This document shows, piece after piece, positions 3,800 to 38,634 of a DNA stretch of 42,471 bases (positions are counted from its first letter, which is position 1; each line of letters begins with the position of its first letter). Location of the stretch: positions 1 through 42,471 of the forward strand of contig JASJBB010000009.1 of assembly GCA_030066735.1 (NCBI GenBank), written 5' to 3'. The notes below the pieces were generated by a model. The model saw only the letters and a list, made by a program, of their open reading frames with translations. It had not been told where the DNA came from and searched no databases. A program made the translations under genes and the position numbers. Source of the DNA: Woeseiaceae bacterium. GTDB lineage: Bacteria; Pseudomonadota; Gammaproteobacteria; Steroidobacterales; Woeseiaceae.

Positions 3800-3804
3800 C
3801 GTGT

Positions 3805-19123: not shown

Positions 19124-20131
19124 ATGCAGAGCATCGAACTGCGCCCGCCGTACCTGATACTGATCGGCGATGACGACGATCCGACCTACGCGAAGACCGG
19201 GTTCGGGATCGTGCATTGGCGGCGGGACAGTGTCGCAGGACAGCTGCGTTTCGACGGCTGCCCGCTCGATCTCGGCGTCCCCGACATGACCGTTGCGCAG
19301 GCCGCGGCAGCCGGGGTCCGCACGCTGGTCATCGGCGTTGCGCCAATCGGGGGCGTCGTCCCCGACGCCTGGTGGGAGGTGATCGTCGAAGCCGCGGCTG
19401 CGGGGCTGGATATCGCCTGCGGTCTGCACCTCAGGCTGGCCGACGTTCCGGAGGTCCGGGATGCTGCCGCACGGTCCGGAGCAAGGCTGATCGACGTCCG
19501 GGTGCCGCCCGCCGGCATTCCGGTCGGCACGGGCAGGAAGCGAAGCGGCAAGCGCCTGCTTACCGTTGGCACCGACTGCGCCGTGGGCAAGAAATACTCG
19601 GCCCTTGCAATCCACAAGGCACTCGAGGATGCCGGCCGCAAAGCGACGTTTCGCGCGACCGGGCAGACCGGGATCATGCTGGCCGGTTCGGGCATTCCGA
19701 TCGACGCCGTCGTCGCCGACTTTGTTTCCGGCGCGGCCGAAATGCTGTCCCCGGACAACGACGGGGACCACTGGGATGTCATCGAGGGCCAGGGCTCGCT
19801 GTTCCATCCGGGCTACGCCGCGGTCAGTCTCGGGCTGCTGCACGGGTCACAGCCTGACGCCATTGTCGTTTGTCATGACGCAACGAGAAGCGAGATCGCT
19901 GGCTGGCCCGGCTACGAGCCCCCCTCGATCCCGGAGTGCAGCGAGCGAAATATCCTGCTCGGGAAACTGACGAATCCGAACATTCGCTGCGTTGGCGTCT
20001 GTGTGAACACCTCGGCACTGGATGACCAGGCGCGCAGCGATTACCTCTCGGCAATCCGGCACGCGACCGGCCTGCCCTGCTTGGACCCGGTCATCGACGG
20101 TTGCGACGCCATTGTCGGCGGCTTGGGCTGA
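19124..20131 (+). CDS. dgcN: DUF1611 / DgcN-type protein (probable D-glutamate N-acetyltransferase)
   Basis: The 335-residue protein belongs to the DUF1611 family: an N-terminal Rossmann-like domain (about residues 1-140) and a C-terminal P-loop-like domain containing TVGTDCAVGKKYSAL and GQTGIMLAGSGIPID. IEGQGSLFHPGYAAVSL is a further family block. Members named DgcN have been reported to N-acetylate D-glutamate in a marine bacterial D-glutamate degradation route, together with the enolase-superfamily partner DgcA. No dgcA is beside it here, so the assignment rests on family membership and the substrate is uncertain. It begins 30 bases after the DUF4920 gene. Its stop codon abuts that of the convergent symporter gene within TGATCA. 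Confidence 0.7.
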   Translation: MQSIELRPPYLILIGDDDDPTYAKTGFGIVHWRRDSVAGQLRFDGCPLDLGVPDMTVAQAAAAGVRTLVIGVAPIGGVVPDAWWEVIVEAAAAGLDIACGLHLRLADVPEVRDAAARSGARLIDVRVPPAGIPVGTGRKRSGKRLLTVGTDCAVGKKYSALAIHKALEDAGRKATFRATGQTGIMLAGSGIPIDAVVADFVSGAAEMLSPDNDGDHWDVIEGQGSLFHPGYAAVSLGLLHGSQPDAIVVCHDATRSEIAGWPGYEPPSIPECSERNILLGKLTNPNIRCVGVCVNTSALDDQARSDYLSAIRHATGLPCLDPVIDGCDAIVGGLG

Positions 20132-21499
20132 TCAGGACAGGTTGTAGACGAACACCGCGGCAACGGCGACCGGCGCCACGACCCGCGTCAGCAGCAGCCA
20201 GAACCTGAACAGCATCCCGTCACCCACGTCGAGTTCATAGACCAGCGTCTTGCGCGCCACGAACCAGCCCGCGAACAGTGCATACAGCATGCCGCCCAGT
20301 GGCATCAGGATGTTGGATACGAGGTAGTCGATCAGGTCGAAAGGGGTCTTGTCCGCGAAGGTGGCGAAATTGCCGAGCGGATAAACGAACTCCCACTTCG
20401 AGAACGACAACACGGTAACGAGCCCGAGCAGGAACGTGCACGCGCCGATCAGCGTCGCCGCTTTCGGTCGCGAAAGCCACGAAATCTCGCTGGCCCGCGC
20501 GGTCGTAGTCTCGAGCATCGATATCGACGATGTCAGCGCGGCAAACAGCAGCATCAGGAAGAAAGCCGCGCTGATGATGTTGCCGCCGGGCATGGCCGCG
20601 AACGCTGTCGACAAGGTGACAAAAATCAGCCCCGGACCTTCCGAGGGGTTCAGGCCGTAGGTGAAGACGATCGGGAAGATCGCCAGCCCCGCAAGCAGTG
20701 CGATGAGCGTGTCGCCGATCGCCACCGCCACGGCCGACTGCATGAGGTTGACCTCCCGTGGCAGGTACGCCGTGTACGTCAGCACCGCGCCGACGCCCAC
20801 GTTGACCGAGAAAAACGCCTGCCCGACGGCCGCGAGCACCACGCCCGGCGTGATCTTGCTGAGATCGGCGCTGAACAGGTATTGGGTGGCCGCGACGAAC
20901 TCGAAGTTGACGGCCGCGTAGACCACGAGCCCGACGAGCATGACGAACAGGCCGGGCATCAGCACCCGGACGACACGCTCGAGCCCGATGCGAACGCCCC
21001 GGGAAACGACGAAGACCGTCAGGGCCGTGAACAGGAAATGCCACAGGATCATCCACGACGGATCGTGCAGGAAGGCGTCGAAGTCGCTGCCGATCTCCGC
21101 GGGACTGAGGCCGTGCAAACCGCCACTGATCGACTTGAACAGGTAGGCCATCGTCCAGCCGGCGATCACGCTGTAAAAACTGAGTACCAGCAGTTGAACG
21201 AGCTGGCCCATCCAGCCCACGGCCTGCCACCAACCGCTGGTGCCGTTCTCGAGGGCGACCTTTTTCATCGCCGACGGCGCGCTCATCCGGGCGTGCCGCC
21301 CGATGACCATCTCGGACAGCATGATCGGCGTCGCGATCAGCAGCATGGCCAGCACGTAGATGAGCACGAAAGCGCTGCCGCCGCTGTTGCCGAGCGTATA
21401 AGGGAACTTCCAGATGTTGCCCAGCCCGACGGCTGCACCGATTGACGCGAGTATGAAAGCCGCCCGCCCGGACCAGGATTCTGTTGTTCTGCCGGCCAC
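20132..21499 (-). CDS. Sodium:neurotransmitter symporter (NSS) family transporter
   Basis: The 455-residue integral membrane protein begins with the NSS signature AAVGLGNIWKFPYTLGNSGGSAF in the first membrane segments, where sodium and substrate bind in LeuT. It continues with about eleven hydrophobic segments. Bacterial members (LeuT, MhsT, TnaT) take up amino acids or related compounds with Na+. The start is the GTG at 21497-21499, preceded by a strong purine-rich ribosome site (GGGGAGGGG). It lies 76 bases after the end of the ygf/xdh-type operon on the same strand and could import its substrate; that link is inferred from position. The gap carries a repeated CGTGATC (21514-21520 and about 21538-21546 on the plus strand). 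Confidence 0.9.
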   Translation of the reverse strand: MAGRTTESWSGRAAFILASIGAAVGLGNIWKFPYTLGNSGGSAFVLIYVLAMLLIATPIMLSEMVIGRHARMSAPSAMKKVALENGTSGWWQAVGWMGQLVQLLVLSFYSVIAGWTMAYLFKSISGGLHGLSPAEIGSDFDAFLHDPSWMILWHFLFTALTVFVVSRGVRIGLERVVRVLMPGLFVMLVGLVVYAAVNFEFVAATQYLFSADLSKITPGVVLAAVGQAFFSVNVGVGAVLTYTAYLPREVNLMQSAVAVAIGDTLIALLAGLAIFPIVFTYGLNPSEGPGLIFVTLSTAFAAMPGGNIISAAFFLMLLFAALTSSISMLETTTARASEISWLSRPKAATLIGACTFLLGLVTVLSFSKWEFVYPLGNFATFADKTPFDLIDYLVSNILMPLGGMLYALFAGWFVARKTLVYELDVGDGMLFRFWLLLTRVVAPVAVAAVFVYNLS

Positions 21500-21575
21500 C
21501 GCCCCTCCCCTTGGGCGTGATCACTGCGGCCAAGCATAGCGTGATCGACCGCCGCGTGCTTATGGCGAGTTGACT

Positions 21576-22790
21576 CTAGAGCACCGCGCGCACGGATTCG
21601 GGATTCGCGTCGACCAGCATTGGCTTGCCAGCCGGGACGGCGCCGATGTCCTTGAGGCCGTTGCCGGTGATCAGCAAGACGACGGTCTCGTCCTTGTCGA
21701 TGCGGCCATTCGCCAACAGGCGTTTGGCGGCGGCCCAGGGCGCCGCCGCTGCCGGCTCCGCAAACACTCCGGCGAGGCCGGCAAGCTCCCCGATGGCCGC
21801 GAGGATTTCGTCATCGGAAACGGTGACGGCTTCGCCACCCGACTCGATGACCGCTCGAACGGCGGCCAGTCCGTCACGAGGCTGGTCGACCGAGATCGAA
21901 TCCGCAACGGTGCTCGCGGCAACGCTCTCCACGTCGATCGTCTGCCAGTTCGGCTCCTGGCCGTCATTCCGAATGCGCTCGATGGTTCGGCAAATGGCTG
22001 CACTGCCGTCCGACTGCGCGCAGTCGATCCGCGGCAGGCGTTCGATCAGGCCGGCAGCCTGCAGATCGCGCCAGCCTTTCCAGGCGCCGCTCAGGATATT
22101 GCCGTCACCGGTCGGCACAATGACACGGTCCGGCACGCGCCCCAGCTGCTCCCAGGTCTCGAATGAACTGGTCTTCTTGCCCTCGCGCGTGAACGGGTTG
22201 AAGCCCGTGCTCCTGTTGAACCAGCCGCGCTCTGCGCACACCTGCAGGCAAAGGTCGTACGCATCGTCATAGCTGCCGCGGACGGCGAGCACCCGGGCGC
22301 CGTAGGCGAGCGACTGGGTGAGCTTGGCCGCGGGCGCCGTTTCGGGGACGAAAACTACGGCGCGCAGGCCCATGGCCGCGGCCAGGCATGCCGTCGAGGA
22401 ACCGGCGTTGCCCGTGCTGGCGACGGCCACCGTGTCGGCTCCCGTTGCCACGCCTCTCAGCAAGGCAACAGCGCTCGCCCGGTCCTTGATCGAGGAACTC
22501 GGATTGCCGGTTTCGTCCTTGAGCCACACGTTCCCGAGCCCGGCTGACGCGCCCAGCCGCTGCGCCCGGTACAGCGGCGTGCCGCCTATCGTTAACGGCA
22601 ACGTCTCGCCGGGATCCGGGCAGGGCAGCAGGGACGCGTAACGGAACATCCCCTCCCTGGCGCCAAAGTCCGGGCCGGCGGCCGCATAGTCGTAGGTGAT
22701 ATCGAGATTGCCGCCGCAAACCGGGCAGACGAATCCGGCATAGTCGGCGCCCTGTCTGGTGTCGCAGGCAATGCAGCGATATCCGTCCAT
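21576..22790 (-). CDS. Threonine synthase-like PLP enzyme with N-terminal zinc ribbon
   Basis: The 404-residue protein starts with a zinc-ribbon-like module (CIAC...CPVC within residues 6-25) and continues as a fold-type II PLP enzyme. The PLP lysine is in NPSSSIKDRAS, the substrate loop in ASTGNAGSS, and the phosphate-binding loop in VPTGDGN; LLITGNGLKD closes the domain. By sequence it would be called threonine synthase (O-phosphohomoserine to threonine). Its place as the last gene of a nine-gene catabolic-type operon, seven bases after carbamate kinase and with no hom or thrB nearby, argues for another elimination or replacement reaction, perhaps on an amino-acid product of the pathway. 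That is an inference; the family also includes ammonia-lyase-like members. Confidence 0.85.
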   Translation of the reverse strand: MDGYRCIACDTRQGADYAGFVCPVCGGNLDITYDYAAAGPDFGAREGMFRYASLLPCPDPGETLPLTIGGTPLYRAQRLGASAGLGNVWLKDETGNPSSSIKDRASAVALLRGVATGADTVAVASTGNAGSSTACLAAAMGLRAVVFVPETAPAAKLTQSLAYGARVLAVRGSYDDAYDLCLQVCAERGWFNRSTGFNPFTREGKKTSSFETWEQLGRVPDRVIVPTGDGNILSGAWKGWRDLQAAGLIERLPRIDCAQSDGSAAICRTIERIRNDGQEPNWQTIDVESVAASTVADSISVDQPRDGLAAVRAVIESGGEAVTVSDDEILAAIGELAGLAGVFAEPAAAAPWAAAKRLLANGRIDKDETVVLLITGNGLKDIGAVPAGKPMLVDANPESVRAVL

Positions 22791-22797
22791 GCTTGCG

Positions 22798-23739
22798 TCA
22801 CGGCACGATGTGCGTGCCCTTGTCTCCTTGCATCGCCGCTTCGAGGTGATGCGGCTGCGTAATGATGACCTCCTGGCCCCCGCTGTCGAGAAACGCGAGC
22901 GCCGCCTCGATCTTCGGCCGCATGCTGCCCGAGGCGAAGTGGCCTTCGTCGAGGTAGCGCCGGCATTCCGCAGCCGTCATGCGATCGATGTCGACTTGCT
23001 CCGGCGTACCGAGGTTCAGGGAAACCATGTCGACGTCGGTTGAGAAGACGAGCACGCTGGCGTCCAGTTCCTGCGCCAGCAGGCAGGATGCCGCATCCTT
23101 GTCGATAACCGCGGGCCGCGGTCGCAGCGAGCCGTCTTCTTTTCGAATAACCGGGATCCCGCCGCCGCCTGCCGCAACGACGATCGTGTCGCTGTCGAGG
23201 AGCGCGCGAATCACGGGCATCTCGAGAATTTCGAGCGGCGCCGGCGACGGTACGACCCGGCGCCAGCCGCGATTCGCATCCTCGGCGATCGCCCAGCCAT
23301 CGTCCCTGGCGCGTTGCCGAGCCTCCGCTTCGTTCATGAACGGACCGATCGGCTTGGTGGGATTGGCAAAGCTCGGGTCTTCCGGGTCGACGAGCACCTG
23401 GGTGACGACGGCCACAACCTGCCGCTCTCTGCCCAGCACCCGGAACGCATTCTGCAGGGTCTGCGCAATCTGCATGCCGATCGAGCCCTGGGTATCGGCA
23501 ACGCAGTTCGCGAGCGGCACCTGGTGGAGCACGTCGCGGGTCAGCTCGGAGCGCATCAGGATGAAACCGACCTGGGGTCCGTTGCCGTGCGTGATCACGA
23601 CCCGGTTGCCCGCCGCGATAATCGGCGCAATGTTCGCCGCCGTTTCACCCGCGGCGCGATACTGGTCCACGACCGACAGGTGCTCGGAGTCGGTGATCAG
23701 GGAATTGCCGCCGATGGCGATGACAACGAGTGGTTTCAC
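22798..23739 (-). CDS. arcC: Carbamate kinase
   Basis: The 313-residue protein has the carbamate kinase motifs AIGGNSLI, THGNGPQVG and VVAAGGGGIPV, with a conserved KDAASCLLA toward the C-terminus. The enzyme makes ATP from carbamoyl phosphate and ADP, releasing carbamate, which breaks down to CO2 and ammonia. Standing nine bases after a YgeW-type carbamoyltransferase, it would harvest ATP from the carbamoyl phosphate that enzyme releases, as in arginine fermentation. E. coli has the paralogue yqeA in the equivalent cluster. The start is the GTG at 23737-23739. Confidence 0.94.
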   Translation of the reverse strand: MKPLVVIAIGGNSLITDSEHLSVVDQYRAAGETAANIAPIIAAGNRVVITHGNGPQVGFILMRSELTRDVLHQVPLANCVADTQGSIGMQIAQTLQNAFRVLGRERQVVAVVTQVLVDPEDPSFANPTKPIGPFMNEAEARQRARDDGWAIAEDANRGWRRVVPSPAPLEILEMPVIRALLDSDTIVVAAGGGGIPVIRKEDGSLRPRPAVIDKDAASCLLAQELDASVLVFSTDVDMVSLNLGTPEQVDIDRMTAAECRRYLDEGHFASGSMRPKIEAALAFLDSGGQEVIITQPHHLEAAMQGDKGTHIVP

Positions 23740-23748
23740 GTCAGCGTC

Positions 23749-24744
23749 CTACATCGTCAGGGCCATGAGCGACTTGGCCGTGTGCAACCGGTTCTCGGCT
23801 TCGGGGTACACGCGCGACTGCGGACCGTCGATGACGGCATCGGTGACTTCGCAGCCGCGATCCGCCGGCAGGCAGTGCATGTAGATCGCGGACTCCTTCG
23901 CCCGGGCCATCATGGCCTCGTCGCAGATCCAGTGACGATACTGCTCGGCGACCTTCATCGCCTCGTCCGGTTTGCTGAACAACGCTTCGACGCCCCAGCT
24001 CTTGGGGTAGACGATATCCGCGTCGGCAAACGCGTCTTCCATGTTGTCCACGACCTCGAAGGTGCCGCCCGAAGCCGCCGCGTTTTCCTGCGCGAGCCGC
24101 ATTGGCTCTTCCATCAGCGTGTACTCGGGCGGGTGCGCCAGGGTCACGTTCATGCCGAAGCGCGTCATGAGCATGATCAGCCCCTGCGGCACGGACATCG
24201 GCTTCACGTAGCTCGGCGCATAGGCCCACGATACCGCGATCTTGAGTTCCGACAGGTCCTTGCCGAATTCCTCGCGGATCGTCATCAGGTCGGCGAGCGT
24301 CTGGCAGGGATGGTCCACATCGCACTGCATGTTGATGATCGGGATATCCGACCACCTGGCAACGTCGCGCATGTAGCTCTGCCCCTCGCCCGGCACCAGG
24401 TCGTGGCGAATCATGATGCCGTGCCCGTAGCTCGACAGGATGATTCCCATGTCCTTGGGGCTCTCGCCGTGCGCGATCTGCGAGGTCTCCGAGTCGATGA
24501 AGTGCGCGTGACCGCCGAGCTGGGTCATGCCCGCCTCGAACGAATTCCTCGTTCGCGTCGACTTGTCGAAGAAAATCAGGAATGCCGTCTTGTGGGCGAG
24601 ATGCAGCGTCGGCACCCCGTTCTTGAAATCGGCCTTGAGCTGGTCCGCGGTTTCGAGCGCGGTTTCGATCTCTTCAACCGACCAGTCCTGCGTCATCAGC
24701 CAGTCGCGACCCTTGAGGTGTGTAGGAATCGGTTTCGGGTTCAC
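23749..24744 (-). CDS. ygeW: YgeW-type carbamoyltransferase
   Basis: The 331-residue protein has the transcarbamoylase fold: the carbamoyl-phosphate loop KSTRTRNSFE (about residues 61-70), DVDHPCQTLADL, and HCLPADRG near the C-terminus. The middle block SVPQGLIMLMTRFGMNVTLAHP is almost that of E. coli YgeW and differs from ornithine carbamoyltransferase, and SQIAHGES also matches YgeW. It is, however, about 65 residues shorter than E. coli YgeW, and its C-terminus (EAENRLHTAKSLM) looks like ornithine carbamoyltransferase. The acceptor substrate of YgeW is not settled. In this operon it most likely runs in the phosphorolytic direction, giving carbamoyl phosphate for the kinase. The GTG start overlaps the ygeY stop by four bases. 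Confidence 0.85.
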   Translation of the reverse strand: MNPKPIPTHLKGRDWLMTQDWSVEEIETALETADQLKADFKNGVPTLHLAHKTAFLIFFDKSTRTRNSFEAGMTQLGGHAHFIDSETSQIAHGESPKDMGIILSSYGHGIMIRHDLVPGEGQSYMRDVARWSDIPIINMQCDVDHPCQTLADLMTIREEFGKDLSELKIAVSWAYAPSYVKPMSVPQGLIMLMTRFGMNVTLAHPPEYTLMEEPMRLAQENAAASGGTFEVVDNMEDAFADADIVYPKSWGVEALFSKPDEAMKVAEQYRHWICDEAMMARAKESAIYMHCLPADRGCEVTDAVIDGPQSRVYPEAENRLHTAKSLMALTM

Positions 24745-25955
24745 CTGGATGCCTCCTCTTCCGGAGTATTCGCAAATTCGTCGACGAGCGCGACGTAGAA
24801 TGCGGACGCACGCACGAGGTGTTCGACCTCGACCTGCTCGTTAGGCGCGTGCGCGAACTTCTCGTGGCCCGGCCCGAAGCCGATTGTCGGGAAACCGGAC
24901 ATGCCGGCGGTCGCAACCGCGTTGGTGCTGAATACCCAGAACCCCACTTCGGCTTCCTCGCCGAATGCGTTGCGGTGGGCGGCGAGCGCCGCCTGCGTTC
25001 CGGGCGCGTCGGCGGGCAGCTGCCACGTCGGATAGTACTTGCGCGTCGGGTATTCGAGTCCCGTGTAGCTCGGAACCTTGTAATCCAGCACGGTGACCGT
25101 TGCCTCTGCGGCCTTGACCGAAGGCAGCGCCTCGATTTCGGCGACCGACGTCTCCTCGGTTTCGCCCACCGTCAGGCGCCTGTCGAGGTGAATCGTGCAG
25201 CCGTCAGCGACCGCGCAGAGGCTGGGCGACGTCGAACGAATCTCGCTGATAGTCACGGTGCCCTTGCCGAGCGGCTCGCGCGGCTCGAGTCGCTCGTTCA
25301 GCGCCTCGATGTCGGCAATGATGTCCGCCATCTTGTAGACGGCATTCACGCCGCGTTCCGGCGCCGAGCCGTGACAGGACACGCCGGACGTGTGCACTTC
25401 CATCTCCATGCGTCCGCGATGGCCGCGATAGACGCGCAGGCTCGTCGGTTCGGTAATGACGACGAGTTCCGGACGAATGCCGTCCTCGTTGGCGATGTAC
25501 TGCCAGCAGAGGCCATCACAGTCCTCCTCCTGCACGGTCGCCGTCACGAGCACGGTGACGTCGTCCGGGACGCCGCGCTGGAGAATCAGCGCGCCGGCGT
25601 AGACGCTCGACGCCACGCCGCCTTTCATGTCACTTGCGCCGCGACCGTAGAGAATCCCGTCCTCGATCTCTGCAGAAAACGGTTCGCGGTCCCACAGGCT
25701 CGGATCGCCAACGTCGACGATGTCGACGTGCCCGTCCAGCGCGATGACGCGCGGACCGGAGCCGATGCGTCCGATGAGATTGCCCATCGGGTCGACGGTG
25801 ACTTCGTCGTAGCCCAGCTTTTCCATCTCCTCGCGAATGCGGGCGATGACGTTGCCTTCCTGCGAACTCAGGGACGGAATTCGGATGATGTCCTGCATGA
25901 ACGCAGTGAGATCTGCTTCGAGCGCGCGTGCGTCGCTCAGGTAGTTATTCTTCAT
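24741..25955 (-). CDS. ygeY: YgeY-type M20 metallohydrolase
   Basis: The 404-residue protein is an M20-family amidohydrolase/peptidase. The two-metal site is visible as DGHVDIVDVGD (H and D ligands), GRGASDMKGG (bridging aspartate) and QEEDCDGL (catalytic and ligand glutamates), with the lid domain in between. The closest named family is YgeY, described as a selenium metabolism-linked hydrolase because it travels with xdhD, ygfK and ssnA. Such enzymes remove an acyl, carbamoyl or similar group from an amino acid. Its ATG overlaps the end of the upstream PLP gene by 11 bases. Confidence 0.87.
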   Translation of the reverse strand: MKNNYLSDARALEADLTAFMQDIIRIPSLSSQEGNVIARIREEMEKLGYDEVTVDPMGNLIGRIGSGPRVIALDGHVDIVDVGDPSLWDREPFSAEIEDGILYGRGASDMKGGVASSVYAGALILQRGVPDDVTVLVTATVQEEDCDGLCWQYIANEDGIRPELVVITEPTSLRVYRGHRGRMEMEVHTSGVSCHGSAPERGVNAVYKMADIIADIEALNERLEPREPLGKGTVTISEIRSTSPSLCAVADGCTIHLDRRLTVGETEETSVAEIEALPSVKAAEATVTVLDYKVPSYTGLEYPTRKYYPTWQLPADAPGTQAALAAHRNAFGEEAEVGFWVFSTNAVATAGMSGFPTIGFGPGHEKFAHAPNEQVEVEHLVRASAFYVALVDEFANTPEEEASR

Positions 25956-27398
25956 TGAAAGCCTCGATCAGCCGGTCCCATTCGTCGACGACGTCCGTCG
26001 AGAAGACCCGGCCCCAGAAATCGGTGTCCCAGAGCTGTCGCAGCTCGTCGGACGACTTGCCCTGCTGCTCGACCCAGGTGAAGTACTTGAAGTTGTGCAG
26101 CGCCTTGCGGTCGGCGTAGTTCAGCTCGCGCACGTGATCGGTCGTGATGCCCTGCAGGTAGCGCGCGTAGTGGCGGTCCGCCATCTGCGCCGTGTACTCG
26201 CCCTGCGATTCGCGGATCTCGTGCATGCGTGACTCGTAGAGGTTCATGGCGTCGGTCAGCGGCACGAAGATCACATCACGTGCGTCCATGTCGAAGTAGC
26301 GCGCCGTCTTGACGGCGGCAACCAGGTTGCAGAGGCTCGACAGGCCGAGCAGCGGCAGGGACGCGAGCAGTTCCTCGTCGACGCCCTCGCGACGCAGACA
26401 CGCGTGGCCGGCCTCTTCATTGAACAGGCGCATCAGCTGCATCATCTGCTCGTCGTCGATCGCCGCGACGAAGTCCGTGTTGCGCACGTTATGGATCCAC
26501 GGAATGTGCTTGTCGCCGATACCCTCGATGCGGTGCTCGCCGAACCCGAATTGCAGGAGCGTCGGGCATTGCAACGCCTCGGTTGCCACGACGCGCAGAT
26601 CCGGATGGCGGGTTCGCAGGAAGTCGCCCGCCGCGATCGTACCCGCGGAACCCGTCGCGCTGACGTAGCCCGCGAGACGCTGCTCGCCATAGTGCGCCGC
26701 ATGGATCTCGTCGATGACCGACCCGGTGACGTGGTAATGCCAGATCGCATTGCCGAATTCGGCGAACTGATTGAAGACCACGACGTCATCGCCACGCTCG
26801 CGCACGAGTTCGTGGCACTTGTCGTAGATCTCCTTGACGTTGGACTCGGTGCCGGGCGTTGCGATGACCTCGTCGGTGCCGATCGCGTGCAGCCACTCGA
26901 AGCGCTCGCGGCTCATTCCTTCGGGCAGGATGGCGATGGCCGGACATGCCAGCAGCGCACAGTCGTAGGCGCCGCCGCGACAGTAGTTGCCGGTCGACGG
27001 CCAGACCGCTTTCTGGGTTTCCGGGTCGAAGTTGCCTGTGACCAGGCGTGGCACGAGGCAGCCGTAAGCCGCGCCAACCTTGTGGGCGCCCGTGGGAAAC
27101 CAGTTGCCCACGATACCGACGATGGTCGCGTCCACGCCGGTAATCGCCTGCGGAAACTCGATCCAGTTGCCATCGTTGTAGCCACCGCCATGCTCGACGG
27201 GCTCGTTCTTCCAGGTGATCCGGAACAGGTTGGCCGGATCGACGTCCCAGAGCCCGACATCCTCGAGCCGCTCGGCGATGCGGGCGGGCACCAGGCGCGG
27301 GTCCTTCATCTGTGCGAACGTGGGTAACTCGATACGGCGCTCTCTGGCGCGCGCCTTCGACTTGTCGAGTACGGCCTGGTTGATGTTGGGTACAAGGC

Positions 27399-27402
<4 letters not shown>
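25945..27402 (-). CDS. Fold-type II PLP-dependent lyase/synthase-like protein, function unknown
   Basis: The 485-residue protein resembles the tryptophan synthase beta / cysteine synthase group. The probable PLP lysine is K108 in GNWFPTGAHKVGAAYG. PSTGNYCRGGAYD is the asparagine/substrate loop, and SATGSAGTIAAGDF is the glycine-rich phosphate loop. A C-terminal extension of about 110 residues, rich in aromatic and charged residues, is not found in ordinary cysteine synthases. It occupies the place that diaminopropionate ammonia-lyase (YgeX) holds next to ygeY in E. coli, but it is not YgeX by sequence and is about 90 residues longer. It may catalyse a beta-elimination on a diamino acid intermediate; this is inferred from position only. 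The ATG overlaps the xdhD stop by four bases. Confidence 0.75.
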
Positions 27403-30148
<2,746 letters not shown>

Positions 30149-30152
<4 letters not shown>

Positions 30153-31060
30153 GACAACCCCTGCCTTGCGCGTTCGACGGCGCGTTCGAGGATGGCGGGC
30201 AGGAACGTGCGCACCATCTGCTCACGGTACTCGCGCGTGGCGCGATACTTGCTGGCGCGCAGCTCGACGTTCTGCAGTGCGACTGCCGCGGCCTTTGCGT
30301 ACTGGCCCGCCGTGGCCGGCTTCCCGATGAGCACGTCCATGGCCGGCTCGGCGAGATGCGGAACCGGACCTACGGGTCCCATGCTGATGCGCGCGTCGCC
30401 GATCACGTTGTCGGCGTCGAGCGCGACGCGCACGCCCATGGATATGATCGGCAGGCACAGCCCCTGCGGCCGCATGACGCGGTGGTGCGCCGAGCCTTCG
30501 CCGGGACCGGTCGGGCGAAAGCGGAGACGCGTCAGCACCTGCCGGTACCGGTCGATGAAGCTCTTGCCCGGCCCCTTGAACGATTCCTGCAGCGGCATCC
30601 AGCGAGCGCCGTCGACGCCCGCGACCTCGATCTCGCCGCCGAGCGCCAGGAGCCCGATCGTGCCGTCGCCGGCCGGCAGTGCATGCGCAACGTTGCCCGC
30701 CAGCGTGCCAACGTTCCTGACCTGCGGACCGCCAATAACGCCGCAGCTCTCGGCCAGGCACGAGCCTTGCTCGATGATGTGCGGGTTCCTGACAATCTGG
30801 CTATGCGTCACGCCGCAGCCGATGACGATGTAGTCGTCTTCAACAGCAATCTCACCCAGGCCGTCGATGTGCGTGACGTCGACCATCGCGCTAACGGGTT
30901 TGTGCAGGCCGCGCCGCGTCTCGACCAGCAGGTCGGTGCCGCCGCCGACGACCCGCGCCTCGCCGTCATAGCGCTGCAGGATTTCGACCGCCTCCTCGAC
31001 GGTGGCGGGCGTGTAATAGTGTTGCCAGCGGTTGCTCGATGCCTGCGCCATGACCGTCAC
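30149..31060 (-). CDS. ygfM: YgfM-type FAD-binding subunit of the molybdenum hydroxylase
   Basis: The 303-residue protein has the FAD-binding motifs of xanthine dehydrogenase medium subunits: VVGGGTDLLVETRRG near the N-terminus and TLAGNVAHALPAGDGTIGLLAL in the middle, followed by the C-terminal CO-dehydrogenase flavoprotein domain. It would accept electrons from the XdhD FeS clusters and pass them to NAD+ or another carrier. I use the GTG at 31058-31060, which overlaps the ssnA stop (GTGA) and has GAGG five bases before it. An ATG at 31049-31051 would shorten the protein by three residues. The gene overlaps xdhD by four bases, so the subunits are probably made together. Confidence 0.88.
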
Positions 31061-32379
31061 CGTATCCTCGACCACAGCGCGGCCGCCCGCTCGACGCAGT
31101 GCGCCCGGATGTCGTTCTCGTGCAGTTTCAGCACGTCGCCGTTCTCGACGATCACGTTGCCGCGGGCGATCGTAGTGTGTGCCCGACTGAAGCCGACGCC
31201 GAACAACAGGTGCCCGAACAGCGTTTCGGGGCGCAGCGGCGTGAACGGCACGTAGTTGTAGATCACAAGATCGGCAAGCTGCCCTTTGACGATCGACCCG
31301 CGCGGCTCGCTGAACAACCGGTTCGCGATGCGGCGATTGTTGCGCAGCAGGATGTCGCAGGACTCGCCGAATGCCAGCGTCGGATTGCGGTGCAGCGTGC
31401 GCTGGTGCATGTACATGGCCCGCGCCTGCGAGATGACGTGCGACGACATGCCGTCGGTACCGACGCCTACCAGCACGCCGTGATCGAGAAAATCGAGTAC
31501 GGGCGACACCGGCAGGCCGTTGTTCATGTTGGACTCGGGATTGCTCACGAGCATCGAATCGGTCGCGGCCAACAGCTGCATCTCTCCGGGCTCGAGATGG
31601 GTGCCATGCACGAAGATCGATTTGTGGCCCGTCATGCCGCGTTCGTGGAAGCGGTCGAGCACGCGTTTGCCATGGCGCTCTCGAGTCGTCTCGACGTCGA
31701 TCGCGTCCTCGGCAGCGTGCACGTGAACTCCGGCATCGAGTTCGCTGCAGATTGCCGCGCAGCGATCGAGCGTCTCGTCACTCAGCGTCATGGACGCGTG
31801 CATGCCGAACATCGCCGTCACCTGGTCGCTGCCGGACTCCCTGCACTTGCGAATGAAGCGCTCGTTCTCCTCGACGCCTTCACCCGGCTTGTTGCGATCC
31901 GACACTTCGTAACAGAGGCACCCGTTCAGTCCCACCTCCGTGAACGCGCGTTCCACCCAGTCGAGGCTGCCCTCACAGCAGGACGGAGACGCGTGATGGT
32001 CGATGACGGTCGTGCACCCCGCCAGCGCCGCATCCAGCAGCGCAAGCAACGCCGAGTAATACACGTCGTCGCTGTCCAGCGCGGCGTCGAGCTTCCACCA
32101 CAGGAAGCGCAGGTTCTCGTCAAAATTGGTCGCCGCCGGACCGGGCGGCGTGAAGCCGCGCGCAAACGTCGAATAGAGATGATGATGAGCAATGATCAGG
32201 CCGGGCATCAGGAGCCTGCCCCCGGCATCGATGGTCCGGTCCGGAGCCAGTGCCTCGGCATCGAGGTTGCCGACGTCGACAATCCGCTCGTCCTCGACGT
32301 AAACGCTGCCCCCGTCGATGACCCGGTTTTCGTCGTCGAGGGTAACGACCTGGGCGTTGGTAATGAGCAGCGACGTCAT
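31057..32379 (-). CDS. ssnA: SsnA-type aminohydrolase
   Basis: The 440-residue protein is a metal-dependent aminohydrolase of the amidohydrolase superfamily, the group that includes guanine deaminase. Metal-ligand motifs are visible: IAHHHLYS after beta-strand 1, VHAAED, HGTHLEPGEM and GTDGMSS (the strand-8 aspartate). SsnA is a fixed partner of XdhD and YgfK and is classed as selenium metabolism-linked. The reaction is not proven, but deamination or ring hydrolysis of a purine-derived compound is likely. The ATG and the ygfK stop overlap by four bases. Confidence 0.9.
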   Translation of the reverse strand: MTSLLITNAQVVTLDDENRVIDGGSVYVEDERIVDVGNLDAEALAPDRTIDAGGRLLMPGLIIAHHHLYSTFARGFTPPGPAATNFDENLRFLWWKLDAALDSDDVYYSALLALLDAALAGCTTVIDHHASPSCCEGSLDWVERAFTEVGLNGCLCYEVSDRNKPGEGVEENERFIRKCRESGSDQVTAMFGMHASMTLSDETLDRCAAICSELDAGVHVHAAEDAIDVETTRERHGKRVLDRFHERGMTGHKSIFVHGTHLEPGEMQLLAATDSMLVSNPESNMNNGLPVSPVLDFLDHGVLVGVGTDGMSSHVISQARAMYMHQRTLHRNPTLAFGESCDILLRNNRRIANRLFSEPRGSIVKGQLADLVIYNYVPFTPLRPETLFGHLLFGVGFSRAHTTIARGNVIVENGDVLKLHENDIRAHCVERAAALWSRIR

Positions 32380-35300
32380 GAGGCCGCGCTCCCGGCAGAC
32401 GGCAACTTCGGCGCCGAGGCCGCAATGTCCACGAGCAGCGTATCAACCGACTTGGACCCCGCTCGATCGATGTACAGCCGCGGCTTGTCGCGATACGGCC
32501 TTCCCGACGTCGGGCAAAACGTCGTGCAGTTGCCGCACTCGTTGCACAGGTCGGCAATGACCGCGACCTGGTAGCGTTGTTGCAGTCCTGACGCCCCTGG
32601 ATCGACCTCGTAGGTCTGCAGGGCGAGGTTCGGGCAGACGCTGACGCACAGGCTGCAGAACGTATCGCATTCGAGGCAACGCTCCGCTTCGGCGCGCACC
32701 TGGTTGTCGTCGAAGGTCTGCACGACTTCGTCGAAGCCCGCGCGGTGGTCGAGTGGCAGCTCGGGCGGCGGGGTACGCCATTGCCGTTGGCTCCTGCGGC
32801 GCAACAGGGTGGCAACGTCCACCTCGGATGCGCCGGGTGTCCTGGCCGCCGCCTTTCGGCCCAGTATGTGCGCGGCCATGGCCTTGCCTGCCGCGGCCGC
32901 TTTGACGATCGACGCGGGACCGGCGTTGGCCACATCGCCGCCGGCATATACGCCGGGCACCGACGTCTCGAAGGTCACCGGGTCGGTGACGATATAGCCC
33001 CGCTCATTGAGCTCGATCGGCTCGCCATCGAGGAAGTCGAGAACCGGGCCCTGGCTGATAGCCAGGATCAGCGTGTCGAGCGGAATCTCGAAATCCGAGC
33101 CGGCAATCTCGTACGGTACCTTGCGGCCCGACGCATCGCGATCGCCGCGATACTCCATGCGCCGGCAGACGAGGGCCCGCAGCTCGCCGTCGTCAACGCG
33201 TATTGCCTGCGGCTTGCATAGCTCGACAACGTCGATCCCTTCCTCGAGCAGGTGACGGATCTCTTCACGATCGGCCGGCATCTGGTCGACCGTGCGCCGG
33301 TACACGAGCGTGACATCGCCCGCGGAGATCCGCCTGGCGACGCGCGCGCAGTCCATGGCGGTGTCGCCGGCGCCGATGACGCCAATGCGCTTGCCGATGC
33401 CGACTGTCTGCTCGTCCCTGGCCTGTCGCAGGAAGGCCAGCGCGTCGATGACACCCGCACTGTCCTCGTTGTCCAGACCCAGCATCTTGCTGCGCTGCGC
33501 ACCGACCAGGACGAGTATCTTGTCGAAGCCTTCGTTTCTGAGGTCGGCCAGGGTGAAGTCGACGCCGGCGGCTTTGTTGTAATGAAAAACGACGCCGAGC
33601 GCTTCGAGCGGCTCAAGGTCTTTCCGGAAAACGCTCCACGGCAAGCGGTATTCGGGAACGACGCCACCAACCATGCCGCCCGCACGCTGACCCCGCTCGA
33701 AAACCTCGACGTGGCAGCCCGCTGCAGCCAGCTCCCTGGCCGCCGCCATGCCGCCGGGACCAGCCCCGATAATCGCGACCTTGAGACCGGCGCCGTCCGT
33801 GCTGCGCGGGACCGCTGGCGCGGGAAGGTCGGCAATGTAGCGCTTCACATCGCGAATCGCGACGGGTTCATCGAGATGATTGCGCACGCAGGTCTGCTCG
33901 CAGAGATGGTCGCAAACCCGGCCCAGCACGCAAGGCAGCGGGTTGTCGGCGCGCACGATCTCGCTCGCCAGCGCGTCGTTGCCCTGGCGCACAGCGCGCA
34001 TGTATTTCGGCACTTTCTGGCTGATCGGGCACTCGTCGACGCAGGGCGGTTTGATGCAATCGAACTCTTCGAGCTGCCGCTGTGTCTTGGTGTGCGCCGT
34101 GTCGAACGTCGCCTTTTTGTACTGCGGGTCCTGCACGACGCGGCGGGCGTAATCGTCGAGCGCCAGCCCGGACGTCTCGCGAAATTCCGCGAGCGTCTCG
34201 GCTCCGGCGTCCTCGATGGCGTCGTCGAGGCATTCGACGTACTGCAGCATGCGCAGGTAGCCGCCGGTCTTCAGCAGGTCGGAGCAGGTCGTCACGGTCT
34301 GCATGCCGCCCGCCAGCAGGTCCGGCGTATTGAAGCAGTTCGCGCCGGCCGAGAACGACATCAGCAGGTCGCCGGCGAACTCGCTATCGAGCTTGCCGGC
34401 CAGGTTGACCGTGATCGCGTGCAGCGGCCGGCCGGACAGGTACATCGTCTTTTCGGCCGGGTCGAAGACCTGTCCGAGGTTCTCGACCTCGAGGGTATTT
34501 GAAAGCTTGACGCCGAATTCGAGTTCGCAGGCATTCGCGACGGCGCGCAGGTTCGTGAGCATCGGCACGGCGTCTTCGTACTTGAGGTCGTGCCCGAAGG
34601 CCTCGTCGGGTACGACCACGTCGATGTAACCGAGATCTTCGTGAAGTATGCCGCGGAGCCGGTCGGCGCCGAGCAGCGTCGGGTTGCACTTGACCAGTGT
34701 GTGCAGGCCGCGCTCTTGCATCAGGTAAGTCGCGATGCTCTCGATTTCATCCGGCGGGCAGCCGTGCATCGTCGACAGCGTGACGTTGTCGGACAGCCGG
34801 TGTGGAACATCGAGCGTGTGTGCGTCGGCGTAGTGGCGCGCCAGGCACTCTAAGAGTTCGTCGACGTGCGACCCTGCGTCCTGCGCCTCGTCGAGGAACC
34901 ATTGCATGTTCCGCTGCCGGATGCCGTCGAGGTCATAGCCGACGCTCAGGTTGAAAACGACGTCGGGCGACTGTCCGGGGAAACCGAGTTTCCGGTGCAG
35001 CGCGTGAATCAGCACCCAGGCGCGTACGTACTCCTCGAGCGACTCGTGCACCCGGAGCTCCTGCGACCATTCGACGTTGTAACCCTCGTCCTCCATGTCG
35101 ATGCAGGGCTTCGGGACGTCGATTTCGTCCAGGGTCTGCACGGTCTTGAGCTCGATGTAGCGCGCGCCGCACAGCCATGCCGCAACAATGTTCTGTGCCA
35201 TCTGCGTATGCGGACCCGCAGCCGGACCGAACGGGGTGCCGATACGCCGGCCGAACGCGGTCGTGGCGAAGCGCTCGTCTTCCCGGGGGCGGAAGAAAAG

Positions 35301-35399
35301 CTGGCGGGGAATTCCAAAGACGGAATCGCGGGTTTCGAGCTCTCGAAAAACCCACGCAAACAGCTGATCCGCGGCTATTGGCCGGAATAGCGCAGACAT
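32376..35399 (-). CDS. ygfK: YgfK-type multidomain iron-sulfur flavoprotein
   Basis: The 1007-residue protein has three parts. Residues 1 to about 420 form a dihydroorotate-dehydrogenase-like TIM barrel (GTPFGPAAGPHTQMAQN, MHGCPPDEIES). About 445-850 are a GltD-like module: FeS cysteines in CIKPPCVDECP and CVLGRVCDHLCEQTC, an FAD fold (VAIIGAGPGGMAAAREL) and a NAD(P)H fold (IGVIGAGDTAMDCARV). The C-terminus holds further FeS cysteines (CLECDTFCSLCVSVCP and CNECGNCTTFCP). The design matches dihydropyrimidine dehydrogenase-type enzymes that reduce a ring with NAD(P)H. E. coli YgfK has been called a selenate reductase subunit and is tied to xdhD clusters. The ATG at 35397-35399 follows a strong GGAGG at eight bases; the frame runs 21 codons further up. 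It is first in the operon. Confidence 0.92.
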   Translation of the reverse strand: MSALFRPIAADQLFAWVFRELETRDSVFGIPRQLFFRPREDERFATTAFGRRIGTPFGPAAGPHTQMAQNIVAAWLCGARYIELKTVQTLDEIDVPKPCIDMEDEGYNVEWSQELRVHESLEEYVRAWVLIHALHRKLGFPGQSPDVVFNLSVGYDLDGIRQRNMQWFLDEAQDAGSHVDELLECLARHYADAHTLDVPHRLSDNVTLSTMHGCPPDEIESIATYLMQERGLHTLVKCNPTLLGADRLRGILHEDLGYIDVVVPDEAFGHDLKYEDAVPMLTNLRAVANACELEFGVKLSNTLEVENLGQVFDPAEKTMYLSGRPLHAITVNLAGKLDSEFAGDLLMSFSAGANCFNTPDLLAGGMQTVTTCSDLLKTGGYLRMLQYVECLDDAIEDAGAETLAEFRETSGLALDDYARRVVQDPQYKKATFDTAHTKTQRQLEEFDCIKPPCVDECPISQKVPKYMRAVRQGNDALASEIVRADNPLPCVLGRVCDHLCEQTCVRNHLDEPVAIRDVKRYIADLPAPAVPRSTDGAGLKVAIIGAGPGGMAAARELAAAGCHVEVFERGQRAGGMVGGVVPEYRLPWSVFRKDLEPLEALGVVFHYNKAAGVDFTLADLRNEGFDKILVLVGAQRSKMLGLDNEDSAGVIDALAFLRQARDEQTVGIGKRIGVIGAGDTAMDCARVARRISAGDVTLVYRRTVDQMPADREEIRHLLEEGIDVVELCKPQAIRVDDGELRALVCRRMEYRGDRDASGRKVPYEIAGSDFEIPLDTLILAISQGPVLDFLDGEPIELNERGYIVTDPVTFETSVPGVYAGGDVANAGPASIVKAAAAGKAMAAHILGRKAAARTPGASEVDVATLLRRRSQRQWRTPPPELPLDHRAGFDEVVQTFDDNQVRAEAERCLECDTFCSLCVSVCPNLALQTYEVDPGASGLQQRYQVAVIADLCNECGNCTTFCPTSGRPYRDKPRLYIDRAGSKSVDTLLVDIAASAPKLPSAGSAAS

Positions 35400-37576: not shown

Positions 37577-38521
37577 ATGAATCAATTGACGTACCACTGG
37601 CGCGCGCTGTTCGTGTGCCTGTTTTTCTGGCTGGCAGATTCCGGCCAGCCGGTCCATGCCGGCGCGACCGAGTGGATGGACATCCGGATCGTCAACGGAA
37701 TGATGCTGGTGGAAACCGAGGTGGCGGGCATCCCCGGGTTTTCGGTCATCGACACGGGGGCATCTCTCGAAGGGATCAATGGCCGGTTTCTCGAAGCCGA
37801 GGGGCTCGAGTACAAGAAGGACCGGAAACTGACCGTCGTGGGTGTGTACGGCAAGGAAAAACGCAGCAGCTATCGCGAGGTTGAGGCTCTTGTCTTCGGC
37901 TCCCCGGTCAAGTTCACGCGCCTCGTCGACGTGAACCTCGGGCCGCCCGAGTATCAGCTCCTGCTCGGATCGAATTTCCTGAAGAGCTACATCTTCCAGT
38001 TCGATTACACCAATGCGCGCATGCGGCTCATCACCAGGGACAGCGTCAACCTGAAGGAAATCCGGAATATCGAGAGCAAACTGGACAACGCTGACAGTTC
38101 GCTGCTGGTCAGGGTCAACCTCGACGAGAAGAACAAGGCGTGGCTGCAGATGGATACCGGCTCGAACGGCGGCATCCTGATCGACCGGCCGCTCGCCAGC
38201 AGGTTAGGCTGGATCGACGCCTATCCGAAAGTAGAAGGCGTATCTTCCGGCGTAGTAACCAGTGGCGCGATGGAGCACTTCCGAGTACCGCTGATCACGG
38301 TCGGCCCGTACGAACTCGAAAACGTGCGAGTCTCAATTCCGGCGGCCGGCGTAGACCCGGAGCTTTTCGAGACGACGACGGAGATCGGCACGAGGATTGC
38401 GAGCCGGCAAGCCTCGGCAGGTCTGCTCGGCTACGAGATCCTGCAGCACTTCGTCGTGACGGTCGATTACCACCGCGGCCACGTGCATTTCTACCCGGGG
38501 CAAAAGATCTCCGACGAATAA
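37577..38521 (+). CDS. Exported two-domain retropepsin-like aspartic protease
   Basis: The 314-residue protein has a hydrophobic N-terminal export signal (LFVCLFFWLADSGQPVHA) and two halves, each with an aspartic protease triad: VIDTGAS (D59) and QMDTGSN (D193). Each half later carries a hydrophobic-glycine block (LLLGSNFL, GLLGYEIL), as expected of two fused retropepsin-like domains that could form one active site. Proteobacterial aspartyl protease family proteins of this kind are periplasmic and mostly uncharacterised. The start has a good ribosome site (GAGAGGA, six bases before ATG). It follows the TIM-barrel lipoprotein by 76 bases, perhaps from its own promoter. Confidence 0.8.
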   Translation: MNQLTYHWRALFVCLFFWLADSGQPVHAGATEWMDIRIVNGMMLVETEVAGIPGFSVIDTGASLEGINGRFLEAEGLEYKKDRKLTVVGVYGKEKRSSYREVEALVFGSPVKFTRLVDVNLGPPEYQLLLGSNFLKSYIFQFDYTNARMRLITRDSVNLKEIRNIESKLDNADSSLLVRVNLDEKNKAWLQMDTGSNGGILIDRPLASRLGWIDAYPKVEGVSSGVVTSGAMEHFRVPLITVGPYELENVRVSIPAAGVDPELFETTTEIGTRIASRQASAGLLGYEILQHFVVTVDYHRGHVHFYPGQKISDE

Positions 38522-38566
38522 CCGCAGTTCGCCCCTGCCAGCATGCTGTTGCCGTGCAGCAGCGTG

Positions 38567-38580
38567 GCGCTCAAGAGCGC
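38567..38580. terminator. GC hairpin in the gap after the retropepsin-like gene
   Basis: GCGCTC-AA-GAGCGC is a perfect inverted repeat 45 bases after the stop codon. The very small loop and the missing T-run make it a weak candidate for an intrinsic terminator. The remaining gap (38522-38634) holds nothing else I can identify apart from a possible CAGC/GCTG dyad at about 38546-38562. Confidence 0.25.
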
Positions 38581-38634
38581 GCCGGATCTGCCGATAAACA
38601 CTTGGGATTCCATGAGGTTTGCGCAGGGAAGGCG

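What the first reader, a model, noticed from the sequence alone, without database searches (positions are those of the whole stretch)
20132..35399. Variant xdhD/ygfK operon with two unexpected PLP enzymes and a sodium symporter
Nine minus-strand genes are joined by 4-11-base overlaps or gaps under 10 bases (ygfK, ssnA, ygfM, xdhD, PLP enzyme, ygeY, ygeW, carbamate kinase, threonine-synthase-like), with an NSS symporter 76 bases on. XdhD, YgfK, YgfM, SsnA, YgeY and YgeW are the known selenium-linked set, connected in gut bacteria with anaerobic purine/urate breakdown. Here YgeX and the hydantoinase are missing and two other fold-type II PLP enzymes are present. The gene set predicts a complete route: uptake, hydroxylation, ring reduction, hydrolysis, elimination, then ATP from carbamoyl phosphate. 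The substrate may differ from that of the gut version.
Basis: partly seen in the sequence, partly recalled or inferred. Interest (0 to 1): 0.82.

Follow-up and report, generated by a model that had tools for sequence, protein, structure and literature searches.

The report
Variant purine-breakdown operon without YgeX
An uncultured bacterium carries a nine-gene set resembling the gut-bacterial route that breaks down uric acid, but two other vitamin-B6 enzymes stand where the usual last enzyme is missing, and the same pair recurs beside such genes in many unrelated bacteria.

Summary
In detail: nine minus-strand genes, ygfK-ssnA-ygfM-xdhD-PLP485-ygeY-YgeW-like carbamoyltransferase-carbamate kinase-ThrC-like, are coupled by overlaps or gaps under 10 bases. 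The order is kept in sister genomes of the genus (PLP485 in 22 of 61). The symporter is not conserved and is probably not a member. No YgeX orthologue was found in 18 of 18 operon genomes examined; a hydantoinase lies elsewhere, beside pyrimidine-degradation genes. The label 'selenium-linked' fails (YqeB over cut-off in 0 of 29 genomes).

The two fold-type II PLP enzymes are the new part. PLP485 is an OASS-fold enzyme below every NCBIfam cut-off. The ThrC-like protein has lost the phosphate pocket of threonine synthase (0 of 52 distinct sequences keep any of four residues; an Asp is invariant), and a true ThrC lies elsewhere. The pair recurs beside reductive-urate genes in many phyla, often without YgeX but not always. 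I read the operon as a variant of the 2025 reductive urate pathway in which this pair handles the C3 diamino-acid end. Substrate and reactions are inferred. Another heterocycle remains possible: XdhD differs from E. coli XdhD at its active site, and an NCS2 purine permease was found in only 1 of 18 operon genomes.

The parts
32376..35399 (-). ygfK: FMN/FAD/4Fe-4S reductase (start placed at the Met that aligns with the E. coli YgfK start; longest ORF begins at 35462)
   Evidence: TIGR03315 882 bits, over cut-off 835; aligned to E. coli YgfK
31057..32379 (-). ssnA: amidohydrolase, predicted ring opener
   Evidence: NF005540 472 bits, over cut-off 444; TIGR03314 436, under its cut-off 455.5; alignment to E. 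coli SsnA
30149..31075 (-). ygfM-like FAD subunit of the molybdenum hydroxylase
   Evidence: PF00941, PF03450; best NCBIfam XdhB 163 bits, below cut-off 310
27399..30152 (-). xdhD: fused 2Fe-2S / molybdopterin hydroxylase
   Evidence: best family TIGR03311 722 bits, below cut-off 830; motifs GGGFGGKE and AFRGFG
25945..27402 (-). PLP485: fold-type II PLP enzyme of OASS/CBS fold, unnamed family
   Evidence: Pfam PALP; all NCBIfam matches below cut-off; AlphaFold model pLDDT 91.5 matching OASS and CBS, Z 32-36
24741..25955 (-). ygeY: M20 hydrolase
   Evidence: NF009555 555 bits, cut-off 321
23749..24744 (-). short YgeW-like carbamoyltransferase with the knot-loop motif
   Evidence: best solved relative 3q98, E 1.5e-67; in the tree the Woeseiaceae form is sister to the YgeW clade
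22798..23739 (-). carbamate kinase
   Evidence: NF009007 380 bits, cut-off 266; TIGR00746 348, just under its cut-off 358
21576..22790 (-). ThrC-like fold-type II PLP enzyme lacking the phosphohomoserine pocket
   Evidence: TIGR00260 181 bits, cut-off 167; pocket residues replaced in 52 of 52 distinct sequences; model pLDDT 94.1
20132..21499 (-). NSS-family sodium symporter: adjacent, probably not part of the conserved system
   Evidence: PF00209; in 0 of 14 sister loci with downstream sequence

Best explanation
The nine genes encode a variant of the reductive (urate-type) purine degradation pathway. Inferred steps: XdhD/YgfM and YgfK use NAD(P)H to reduce an oxopurine; SsnA opens the first ring; the hydantoin ring is opened by a dihydropyrimidinase encoded elsewhere; the YgeW-like enzyme and carbamate kinase turn one ureido group into carbamoyl phosphate and ATP; YgeY removes the other; the resulting 2,3-diaminopropionate-type amino acid is broken to pyruvate and ammonia by the PLP485/ThrC-like pair in place of YgeX. 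Shown here: gene set, conservation, absence of YgeX, loss of the threonine-synthase pocket, recurrence of the pair with these genes. Not shown: any reaction, the substrate, or which PLP enzyme does what. My guess is that the ThrC-like enzyme, with an invariant Asp where threonine synthase binds phosphate, takes the diamino acid, and that PLP485 works on it or on its ureido precursor or other stereoisomer.
For: YgfK, SsnA and YgeY pass curated cut-offs; each has an assayed E. coli counterpart (PMC12507026). Nine-gene order in the genus. Outside the five Woeseiaceae-type loci, 75 PLP485 loci from many phyla (the best-scoring of at least 592 relatives): ThrC-like in 37, XdhD-like 21, YgfK 20, YgeW-type 18, SsnA 16, carbamate kinase 16, YgeY 15, HyuA 10, YgeX 1; 28 of 75 have three or more of the first eight, although many contigs are cut. 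YgeX orthologue in 0 of 18 operon genomes. Canonical ThrC elsewhere in 15 of 17 operon genomes. All four pocket residues replaced in 52 of 52 distinct ThrC-like proteins (16 Woeseiaceae-type, 36 others), Asp229 invariant. Dihydropyrimidinase-like gene elsewhere in 17 of 18 operon genomes. YgeW-type knot loop and tree position. PLP485 and ThrC-like diverge in parallel over 49 loci (Mantel r 0.46, 0 of 2000 permutations reach it; relatedness of hosts not removed). In three genomes with YgeX (L125, L123 and operon-less G037) its 19-20 kb surroundings hold no other gene of this set over 60 bits (L167-L169).
Against: The pair is not strictly a YgeX replacement. Of 61 SsnA-bearing genomes in the phylum of G516 (a Clostridiaceae record, called Bacillota here), those with close PLP485 (49% identity or more) have YgeX in 9 of 19, against 9 of 42 for the rest (Fisher p 0.067, opposite to exclusion); only when homologues at 35-44% are counted too does exclusion appear (10 of 51 against 8 of 10, p 4.6e-4). 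Three Bacillota loci hold ThrC-like, PLP485 and YgeX together (L198, L202, L209). L113 and the L120 genome pair PLP485 with YgeX without a ThrC-like gene in the stretches seen. XdhD lacks the E. coli Glu606 segment and has Glu/Arg motifs where E. coli XdhD has Gln/Gln. NCS2 purine permease in only 1 of 18 operon genomes. 22 of 75 PLP485 loci outside the Woeseiaceae type show none of the eight families. The XdhD-like matches outside the genus are about 35% and need not be XdhD proper.
Confidence: 0.52

Rival explanations
1. Same enzyme logic, different N-heterocycle: the operon reduces and opens a substrate other than urate (for example xanthine taken directly, or another oxopurine or hydantoin-forming heterocycle).
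For: XdhD has Glu (GGGFGGKE) and Arg (A[FL]RGFG), unlike E. coli XdhD, in the window and in 15 of 15 sister loci read; E. coli Glu606 falls in an insertion absent here; NCS2 permease in 1 of 18 operon genomes; no HyuA in any of the 19 sister loci.
Against: YgfK and SsnA pass the cut-offs of families whose E. coli members act on yanthine (PMC12507026). The Glu/Arg motifs are usual in cluster-borne XdhD-like proteins of other phyla too (Glu 13 of 15, Arg 15 of 15), so E. coli may be the exception. Clusters with the same PLP pair elsewhere carry HyuA, YgeW and YgeY; 8 of 38 Bacillota SsnA loci hold an NCS2-type permease and some Chloroflexota loci an ABC transporter that by eye is of nucleoside type.
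Confidence: 0.25
2. The PLP pair does not end the pathway but does something beside it, such as interconverting stereoisomers or diverting diaminopropionate into another amino acid by beta-replacement (PLP485 has the cysteine-synthase fold).
For: Pair coexists with YgeX in three Bacillota loci, and 9 of 19 Bacillota genomes with close PLP485 have YgeX; PLP485 fold is OASS/CBS; SbnA, a diaminopropionate-biosynthesis enzyme, is a weak relative.
Against: In 18 of 18 operon genomes and 17 of 21 other PLP485 genomes searched no YgeX orthologue was found (completeness of the 21 not given), so something else must cleave the C3 amino acid there if the pathway is complete.
Confidence: 0.2
3. The ThrC-like gene is an ordinary threonine synthase and PLP485 an ordinary cysteine synthase carried in the operon by chance.
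For: TIGR00260 thrC passes its cut-off; nearest solved structures are threonine synthases (Z 41-46 for the best ten apart from CapA2) and OASS.
Against: Pocket residues lost in 52 of 52; separate ThrC in 15 of 17 operon genomes; PLP485 below every NCBIfam cut-off; the pairing recurs across phyla.
Confidence: 0.03

Closest known systems
Reductive uric acid degradation cluster of E. coli / C. difficile (XdhD-YgfM, YgfK or UacX, SsnA, HyuA, YgeW or UacY, YqeA, YgeY, YgeX; PMC12507026)
   Same: XdhD-YgfM type hydroxylase, YgfK, SsnA, YgeY, a YgeW-type carbamoyltransferase and carbamate kinase
   Different: no YgeX and no HyuA in the operon; PLP485 and ThrC-like instead; short carbamoyltransferase; no YqeB; XdhD active-site motifs differ from E. 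coli XdhD
YgeX, diaminopropionate ammonia-lyase
   Same: fold-type II PLP enzyme in the same kind of cluster
   Different: neither window PLP enzyme is an orthologue: in the window genome the best YgeX-query hit is 53 bits and lies elsewhere (C14); the ThrC-like gene scores 25 bits
Threonine synthase (ThrC)
   Same: fold; N-terminal four-cysteine region by eye
   Different: Asn154, Ser155, Arg160 and Asn188 (T. thermophilus numbering) are all replaced; Asp at 188
CapA2 (9k3c) and archaeal-type cysteate synthase (TIGR03844)
   Same: CapA2 of Alistipes matches the ThrC-like model over 384 residues, Z 43.3, as well as threonine synthases do
   Different: 20% identity; TIGR03844 90 bits against cut-off 325
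O-acetylserine sulfhydrylase / cystathionine beta-synthase
   Same: fold of residues about 35-417 of PLP485
   Different: 485 residues with N- and C-terminal extensions; GDKHxPWxHN and STGNYCRGG motifs; below all family cut-offs

Membership tests
Reductive urate cluster (E. coli type) | YgfK and SsnA | tested here: met
   TIGR03315 882 bits (cut-off 835); NF005540 472 (444); TIGR03314 436 is under its cut-off 455.5
Reductive urate cluster (E. coli type) | XdhD with FAD subunit YgfM | tested here: inconclusive
   Adjacent genes of the right kind; best family TIGR03311 but 722 bits is below cut-off 830; Glu606 segment absent
Reductive urate cluster (E. coli type) | YgeY | tested here: met
   NF009555 555 bits, cut-off 321
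Reductive urate cluster (E. coli type) | YgeX | tested here: not met
   No orthologue in 18 of 18 operon genomes searched; the window genome is 85% complete, G026 is listed as 100%
Reductive urate cluster (E. coli type) | HyuA in the cluster | tested here: not met
   No match in the 19 sister loci; dihydropyrimidinase elsewhere, G000:C144, TIGR02033 602 bits
Reductive urate cluster (E. coli type) | Acts on urate through yanthine | not testable with these tools
   needs assay
YgeW (knotted carbamoyltransferase) | NCBIfam YgeW cut-off | tested here: not met
   256 of 453 and 237 of 500 bits
YgeW (knotted carbamoyltransferase) | Knot-loop motif and tree position | tested here: met
   WAYAPSYVKPMSVPQG against WAYSPSYGKPLSVPQG; Woeseiaceae form sister to the YgeW clade, support values not read; that this loop is the knot loop is recalled
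Selenium-dependent molybdenum hydroxylase set | YqeB (TIGR03309), the marker used in PMC2276186 | tested here: not met
   over cut-off in 0 of 29 genus genomes, best 21 bits against 220; SelD itself not searched
Threonine synthase | Phosphohomoserine phosphate pocket (Asn154, Ser155, Arg160, Asn188; role recalled, numbering read) | tested here: not met
   none kept in any of 52 distinct ThrC-like sequences
Cysteine synthase | NCBIfam cysK / cysM cut-off | tested here: not met
   95 bits against 351, 40 against 394

The most novel reading that the evidence does not exclude
PLP485 plus the ThrC-like enzyme is an unrecognised module of the reductive purine pathway: a YgeX-independent way of cleaving the diaminopropionate end, spread over Gammaproteobacteria, Bacteroidota, Chloroflexota, Planctomycetota, Acidobacteria and Bacillota, and hidden so far because a survey by Pfam family counts any PF00291 protein as YgeX.
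Probability: 0.42. Interest if true: 0.74.

Novelty: new variant of a known kind. Interest (0 to 1): 0.6.

Why it matters
The reductive urate pathway was assigned enzyme by enzyme only in 2025, and YgeX was given as its last step. In a sample of 61 SsnA-bearing Bacillota genomes only 18 had a YgeX match, so many genomes with the pathway's marker gene lack the published last enzyme (not all of these need be urate degraders). A conserved pair of unassigned PLP enzymes that travels with the pathway is a concrete, testable candidate. The published neighbourhood survey used the Pfam family PF00291 for YgeX (PMC12507026); the window's PLP485 and ThrC-like both match that family, so such a survey cannot tell them from YgeX. 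The finding also takes this gene set to Woeseiaceae, which I recall as marine-sediment rather than gut bacteria.

Tried and rejected
Rejected: symporter as uptake part (in 0 of 14 sister loci with downstream sequence). DgcN (D-glutamate N-acetyltransferase family, 19124-20131, plus strand, convergent) as a partner: 470.8 bits against cut-off 480 and no match in the 19 sister loci. ThrC-like as the housekeeping ThrC. PLP485 as a HyuA substitute: a PLP enzyme needs a free amine, which ureidomethyl-hydantoin lacks (chemical reasoning), and HyuA sits near PLP485 in 10 of 75 loci. Strict mutual exclusion of YgeX and close PLP485 in Bacillota: not supported.

Led nowhere: E. coli Glu606 falls in an insertion, so it does not decide specificity. 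The fold searches returned general OASS, CBS and ThrC matches that do not name a reaction; diaminopropionate ammonia-lyase structures appear for the ThrC-like model at Z about 35, level with serine racemase and threonine deaminase, and are not among the 50 rows shown for PLP485. No paper linking this pair to urate turned up; one search was too broad to be useful and one search found no paper on the threonine-synthase pocket. One search used an ill-chosen family and told nothing about the operon. No proper random-locus control for the co-localisation counts was run; the paralogue locus L041 shows none of the other families, and seven stretches of about 10-20 kb around hydantoinase, YgeX or other genes (L162-L164, L167-L170) show over 60 bits only YgfK-like matches (in L162 the PreT-type gene), a hydantoinase and the YgeX used as bait.

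Corrections made while working: G029 was first treated as lacking the operon and turned out to hold it, cut by a contig end; the counts for searches use 18 operon and 11 operon-less genomes; G029 was not searched (17 genomes). G013, G018, G025 and G036, which also hold PLP485 cut by contig ends, were not in those searches. L047 and L049 are the same contigs as those of G012 and G009 (L027, L037); they are outside the 75, and the duplicate ThrC-like sequence was dropped (53 to 52). Bacillota regions for one search were chosen partly because SsnA and PLP485 lie on one contig, so the PLP485 frequency in that set is biased upward; genome-level counts are not.
Full report
What is there. The window is one whole contig (C168, 42,471 bases) of an 85%-complete, 3.34 Mb genome. 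Titles of the closest named records are Gammaproteobacteria, Woeseiaceae and Lysobacterales; I call the genus Woeseiaceae-type on that ground. Nine minus-strand genes, 21576-35399, are coupled by overlaps or gaps under 10 bases, with an NSS symporter 76 bases further. YgfK, SsnA, YgeY and carbamate kinase each pass an NCBIfam cut-off of their kind; XdhD, the FAD subunit and the YgeW-like protein match the right families but stay below cut-off.

Conservation. PLP485 is found full length in 17 of 61 genomes of the genus (window included), cut by a contig end in four more (G036, G018, G013, G025), and as a 38-residue end in G029, where the fetched stretch shows the rest of the operon running into the contig end: 22 of 61. 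The 38 genomes of other families of the order gave only weak, cysteine-synthase-like matches (56 bits or less). Nineteen sister loci were fetched and none contradicts the order ygfK-ssnA-ygfM-xdhD-PLP485-ygeY-carbamoyltransferase-CK-ThrC-like; 11 show all nine genes. In L034 xdhD and the ThrC-like gene are each split into two frames. Flanking genes vary and the symporter appears in none of the 14 loci with downstream sequence. YgfK over cut-off was found in 2 of 398 genomes drawn from the phylum, the window's own and G264.

What is missing and what is elsewhere. With E. coli YgeX as query, 0 of 18 operon genomes searched have an orthologue (best 53 bits), against 332 bits in one (G037) and 142 in another (G015) of 11 operon-less genomes. 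A HyuA-like gene (300 bits or more) is elsewhere in 17 of 18 operon genomes (not G024) and in 7 of 11 operon-less ones, plus one partial, so it hardly tracks the operon. In the window's genome it passes the dihydropyrimidinase cut-off (602, cut-off 393) and lies between an NCS1-family transporter gene (314 bits, cut-off 353) and genes for a PreT-like protein and PreA (696, cut-off 335), which reads as an ordinary pyrimidine-degradation operon. It could serve the hydantoin step; this is inference. A class-I threonine synthase is elsewhere in 15 of 17 operon genomes, including the window's. YqeB is over cut-off in 0 of 29 genomes; five had matches of about 20 bits. The Haft and Self paper says that all TIGR03309 members it found come from species with selD (PMC2276186, passages seen), so the selenium label should be dropped here; SelD itself was not searched. 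An NCS2 purine permease is over cut-off in 1 of 18 operon genomes (G047) and 1 of 11 others.

The two PLP enzymes. Four solved bacterial threonine synthases share NSVNPxR and GNAGN; by the T. thermophilus numbering in that alignment these hold Asn154, Ser155, Arg160 and Asn188, which I recall as the phosphate-binding residues. In 52 distinct ThrC-like proteins from these clusters (53 less one duplicate; 16 Woeseiaceae-type, 36 others) none is kept: position 195 is Thr in 46 (otherwise Cys 4, Ala 1, Ser 1), 196 is Gly 35 or Ala 17, 201 is Thr 37, Met 8, Leu 6, Val 1, and 229 is Asp in 52. An acid in place of the phosphate site fits a positively charged amino group; that is inference. The model keeps the threonine-synthase fold (pLDDT 94.1; Z 41-46 for the best nine ThrC chains, with CapA2 at 43.3 among them). 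PLP485 gave a confident model (pLDDT 91.5, pTM 0.93) whose residues about 35-417 match OASS and CBS (Z 32-36 in the 50 rows shown). It is below every NCBIfam cut-off, as are four homologues scanned. Invariant in the 49 aligned sequences are Lys108, the STGN loop with Cys141 and Arg142, Glu215, and Asp297-Lys298-His299.

Recurrence in other phyla. Leaving out five Woeseiaceae-type loci, within 10 kb or the contig end and over 100 bits, 75 loci hold ThrC-like in 37, XdhD-like 21, YgfK 20, YgeW-type 18, SsnA 16, CK 16, YgeY 15, HyuA 10, YgeX 1; 53 of 75 have at least one of the eight families other than YgeX and 28 at least three; 22 have none. Several Bacteroidota loci read ygfK-PLP485-ThrC-xdhD-ssnA, some with hyuA, ygeW and ygeY near; several Chloroflexota loci hold carbamoyltransferase, CK, ABC transporter, ThrC, PLP485 and hyuA with other genes between. 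Some PLP485 loci, notably a set in Elusimicrobia, stand alone. Twelve of the 38 Bacillota SsnA loci fetched carry ThrC-like, beside PLP485 in 11.

Is it a YgeX replacement? Outside the genus, 17 of 21 PLP485 genomes searched lack YgeX. In the phylum of G516 (Clostridiaceae record; Bacillota here) 61 of 249 genomes have SsnA at E 1e-100, 59 over the family cut-off; of the 61, 18 have YgeX and 51 a PLP485-family protein at E 1e-40 or better, 19 of them at 49% identity or more. Counting all homologues, YgeX is in 10 of 51 with and 8 of 10 without (p 4.6e-4); counting only close ones, in 9 of 19 with and 9 of 42 without (p 0.067, the other way). Three loci carry ThrC-like, PLP485 and YgeX together. 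So the pair belongs with the pathway, is often there without YgeX, but is not strictly exclusive with it.

Mechanism. From PMC12507026 (parts 1-3 of 7 and searched passages read) and PMC12990295 (part 1 of 2), the assayed route is urate to yanthine (XdhD-YgfM), YgfK plus SsnA to ureidomethyl-hydantoin, HyuA to diureidopropionate, YgeW to albizziin, YgeY to diaminopropionate, YgeX to pyruvate. The commentary states that the order of ureido cleavage and the stereochemistry are open. The operon supplies a counterpart for each step but HyuA and YgeX. XdhD carries GGGFGGKE and AFRGFG, with Glu and Arg where E. coli XdhD has Gln and Gln and E. coli XdhA has Gln and Arg; the same Glu and Arg are in 15 of 15 sister loci, and in 13 and 15 of 15 XdhD-like proteins of other phyla. 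I recall these Glu/Arg positions as purine-orienting in xanthine dehydrogenase. This leaves the exact first substrate open.

Verdict. The symporter, the selenium link and the hydroxylation step do not stand. It is a new variant of a known pathway type; its importance rests on the PLP pair, to which I found no reaction assigned.

Noticed in passing
L041 (G014:C76), 391-4851: A paralogue of PLP485 (about 45% identity) adjoins transketolase and xylose-isomerase-like TIM-barrel genes, so the wider family probably has other roles.
   Followed up: partly
L203-L207: In five Bacillota loci a PLP485 homologue (46-48% to the closest reference) stands next to ssnA with XdhD-like genes but no YgeY, carbamoyltransferase or ThrC-like gene in the stretch: a possible second subfamily.
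   Followed up: partly
L079, L086, L068, L081: Two different carbamoyltransferase genes side by side in these clusters, one of each pair without the knot-loop motif; perhaps one per ureido group.
   Followed up: no
L194-L196, L199-L201, L213: A 179-185 residue protein, by eye an HTH-cupin regulator, sits next to the ThrC-like gene in seven Bacillota clusters; no family scan was run on it.
   Followed up: no
L034: xdhD and the ThrC-like gene are each broken into two frames in an otherwise complete operon (assembly error or decay).
   Followed up: no
window 19124-20131: DgcN-like gene (D-glutamate N-acetyltransferase family) convergent with the symporter, their ends abutting; no match in the sister loci.
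   Followed up: partly
window 37577-40299: An ORF with aspartyl-protease matches (37577-38521) and a 719-residue ORF with a Flagellin_IN match (38140-40299); overlapping ORFs, not resolved.
   Followed up: no
window 12539-17747: MacB-like permease, ABC ATPase and two HlyD/RND-type adaptor genes on the minus strand, an efflux-type set.
   Followed up: no
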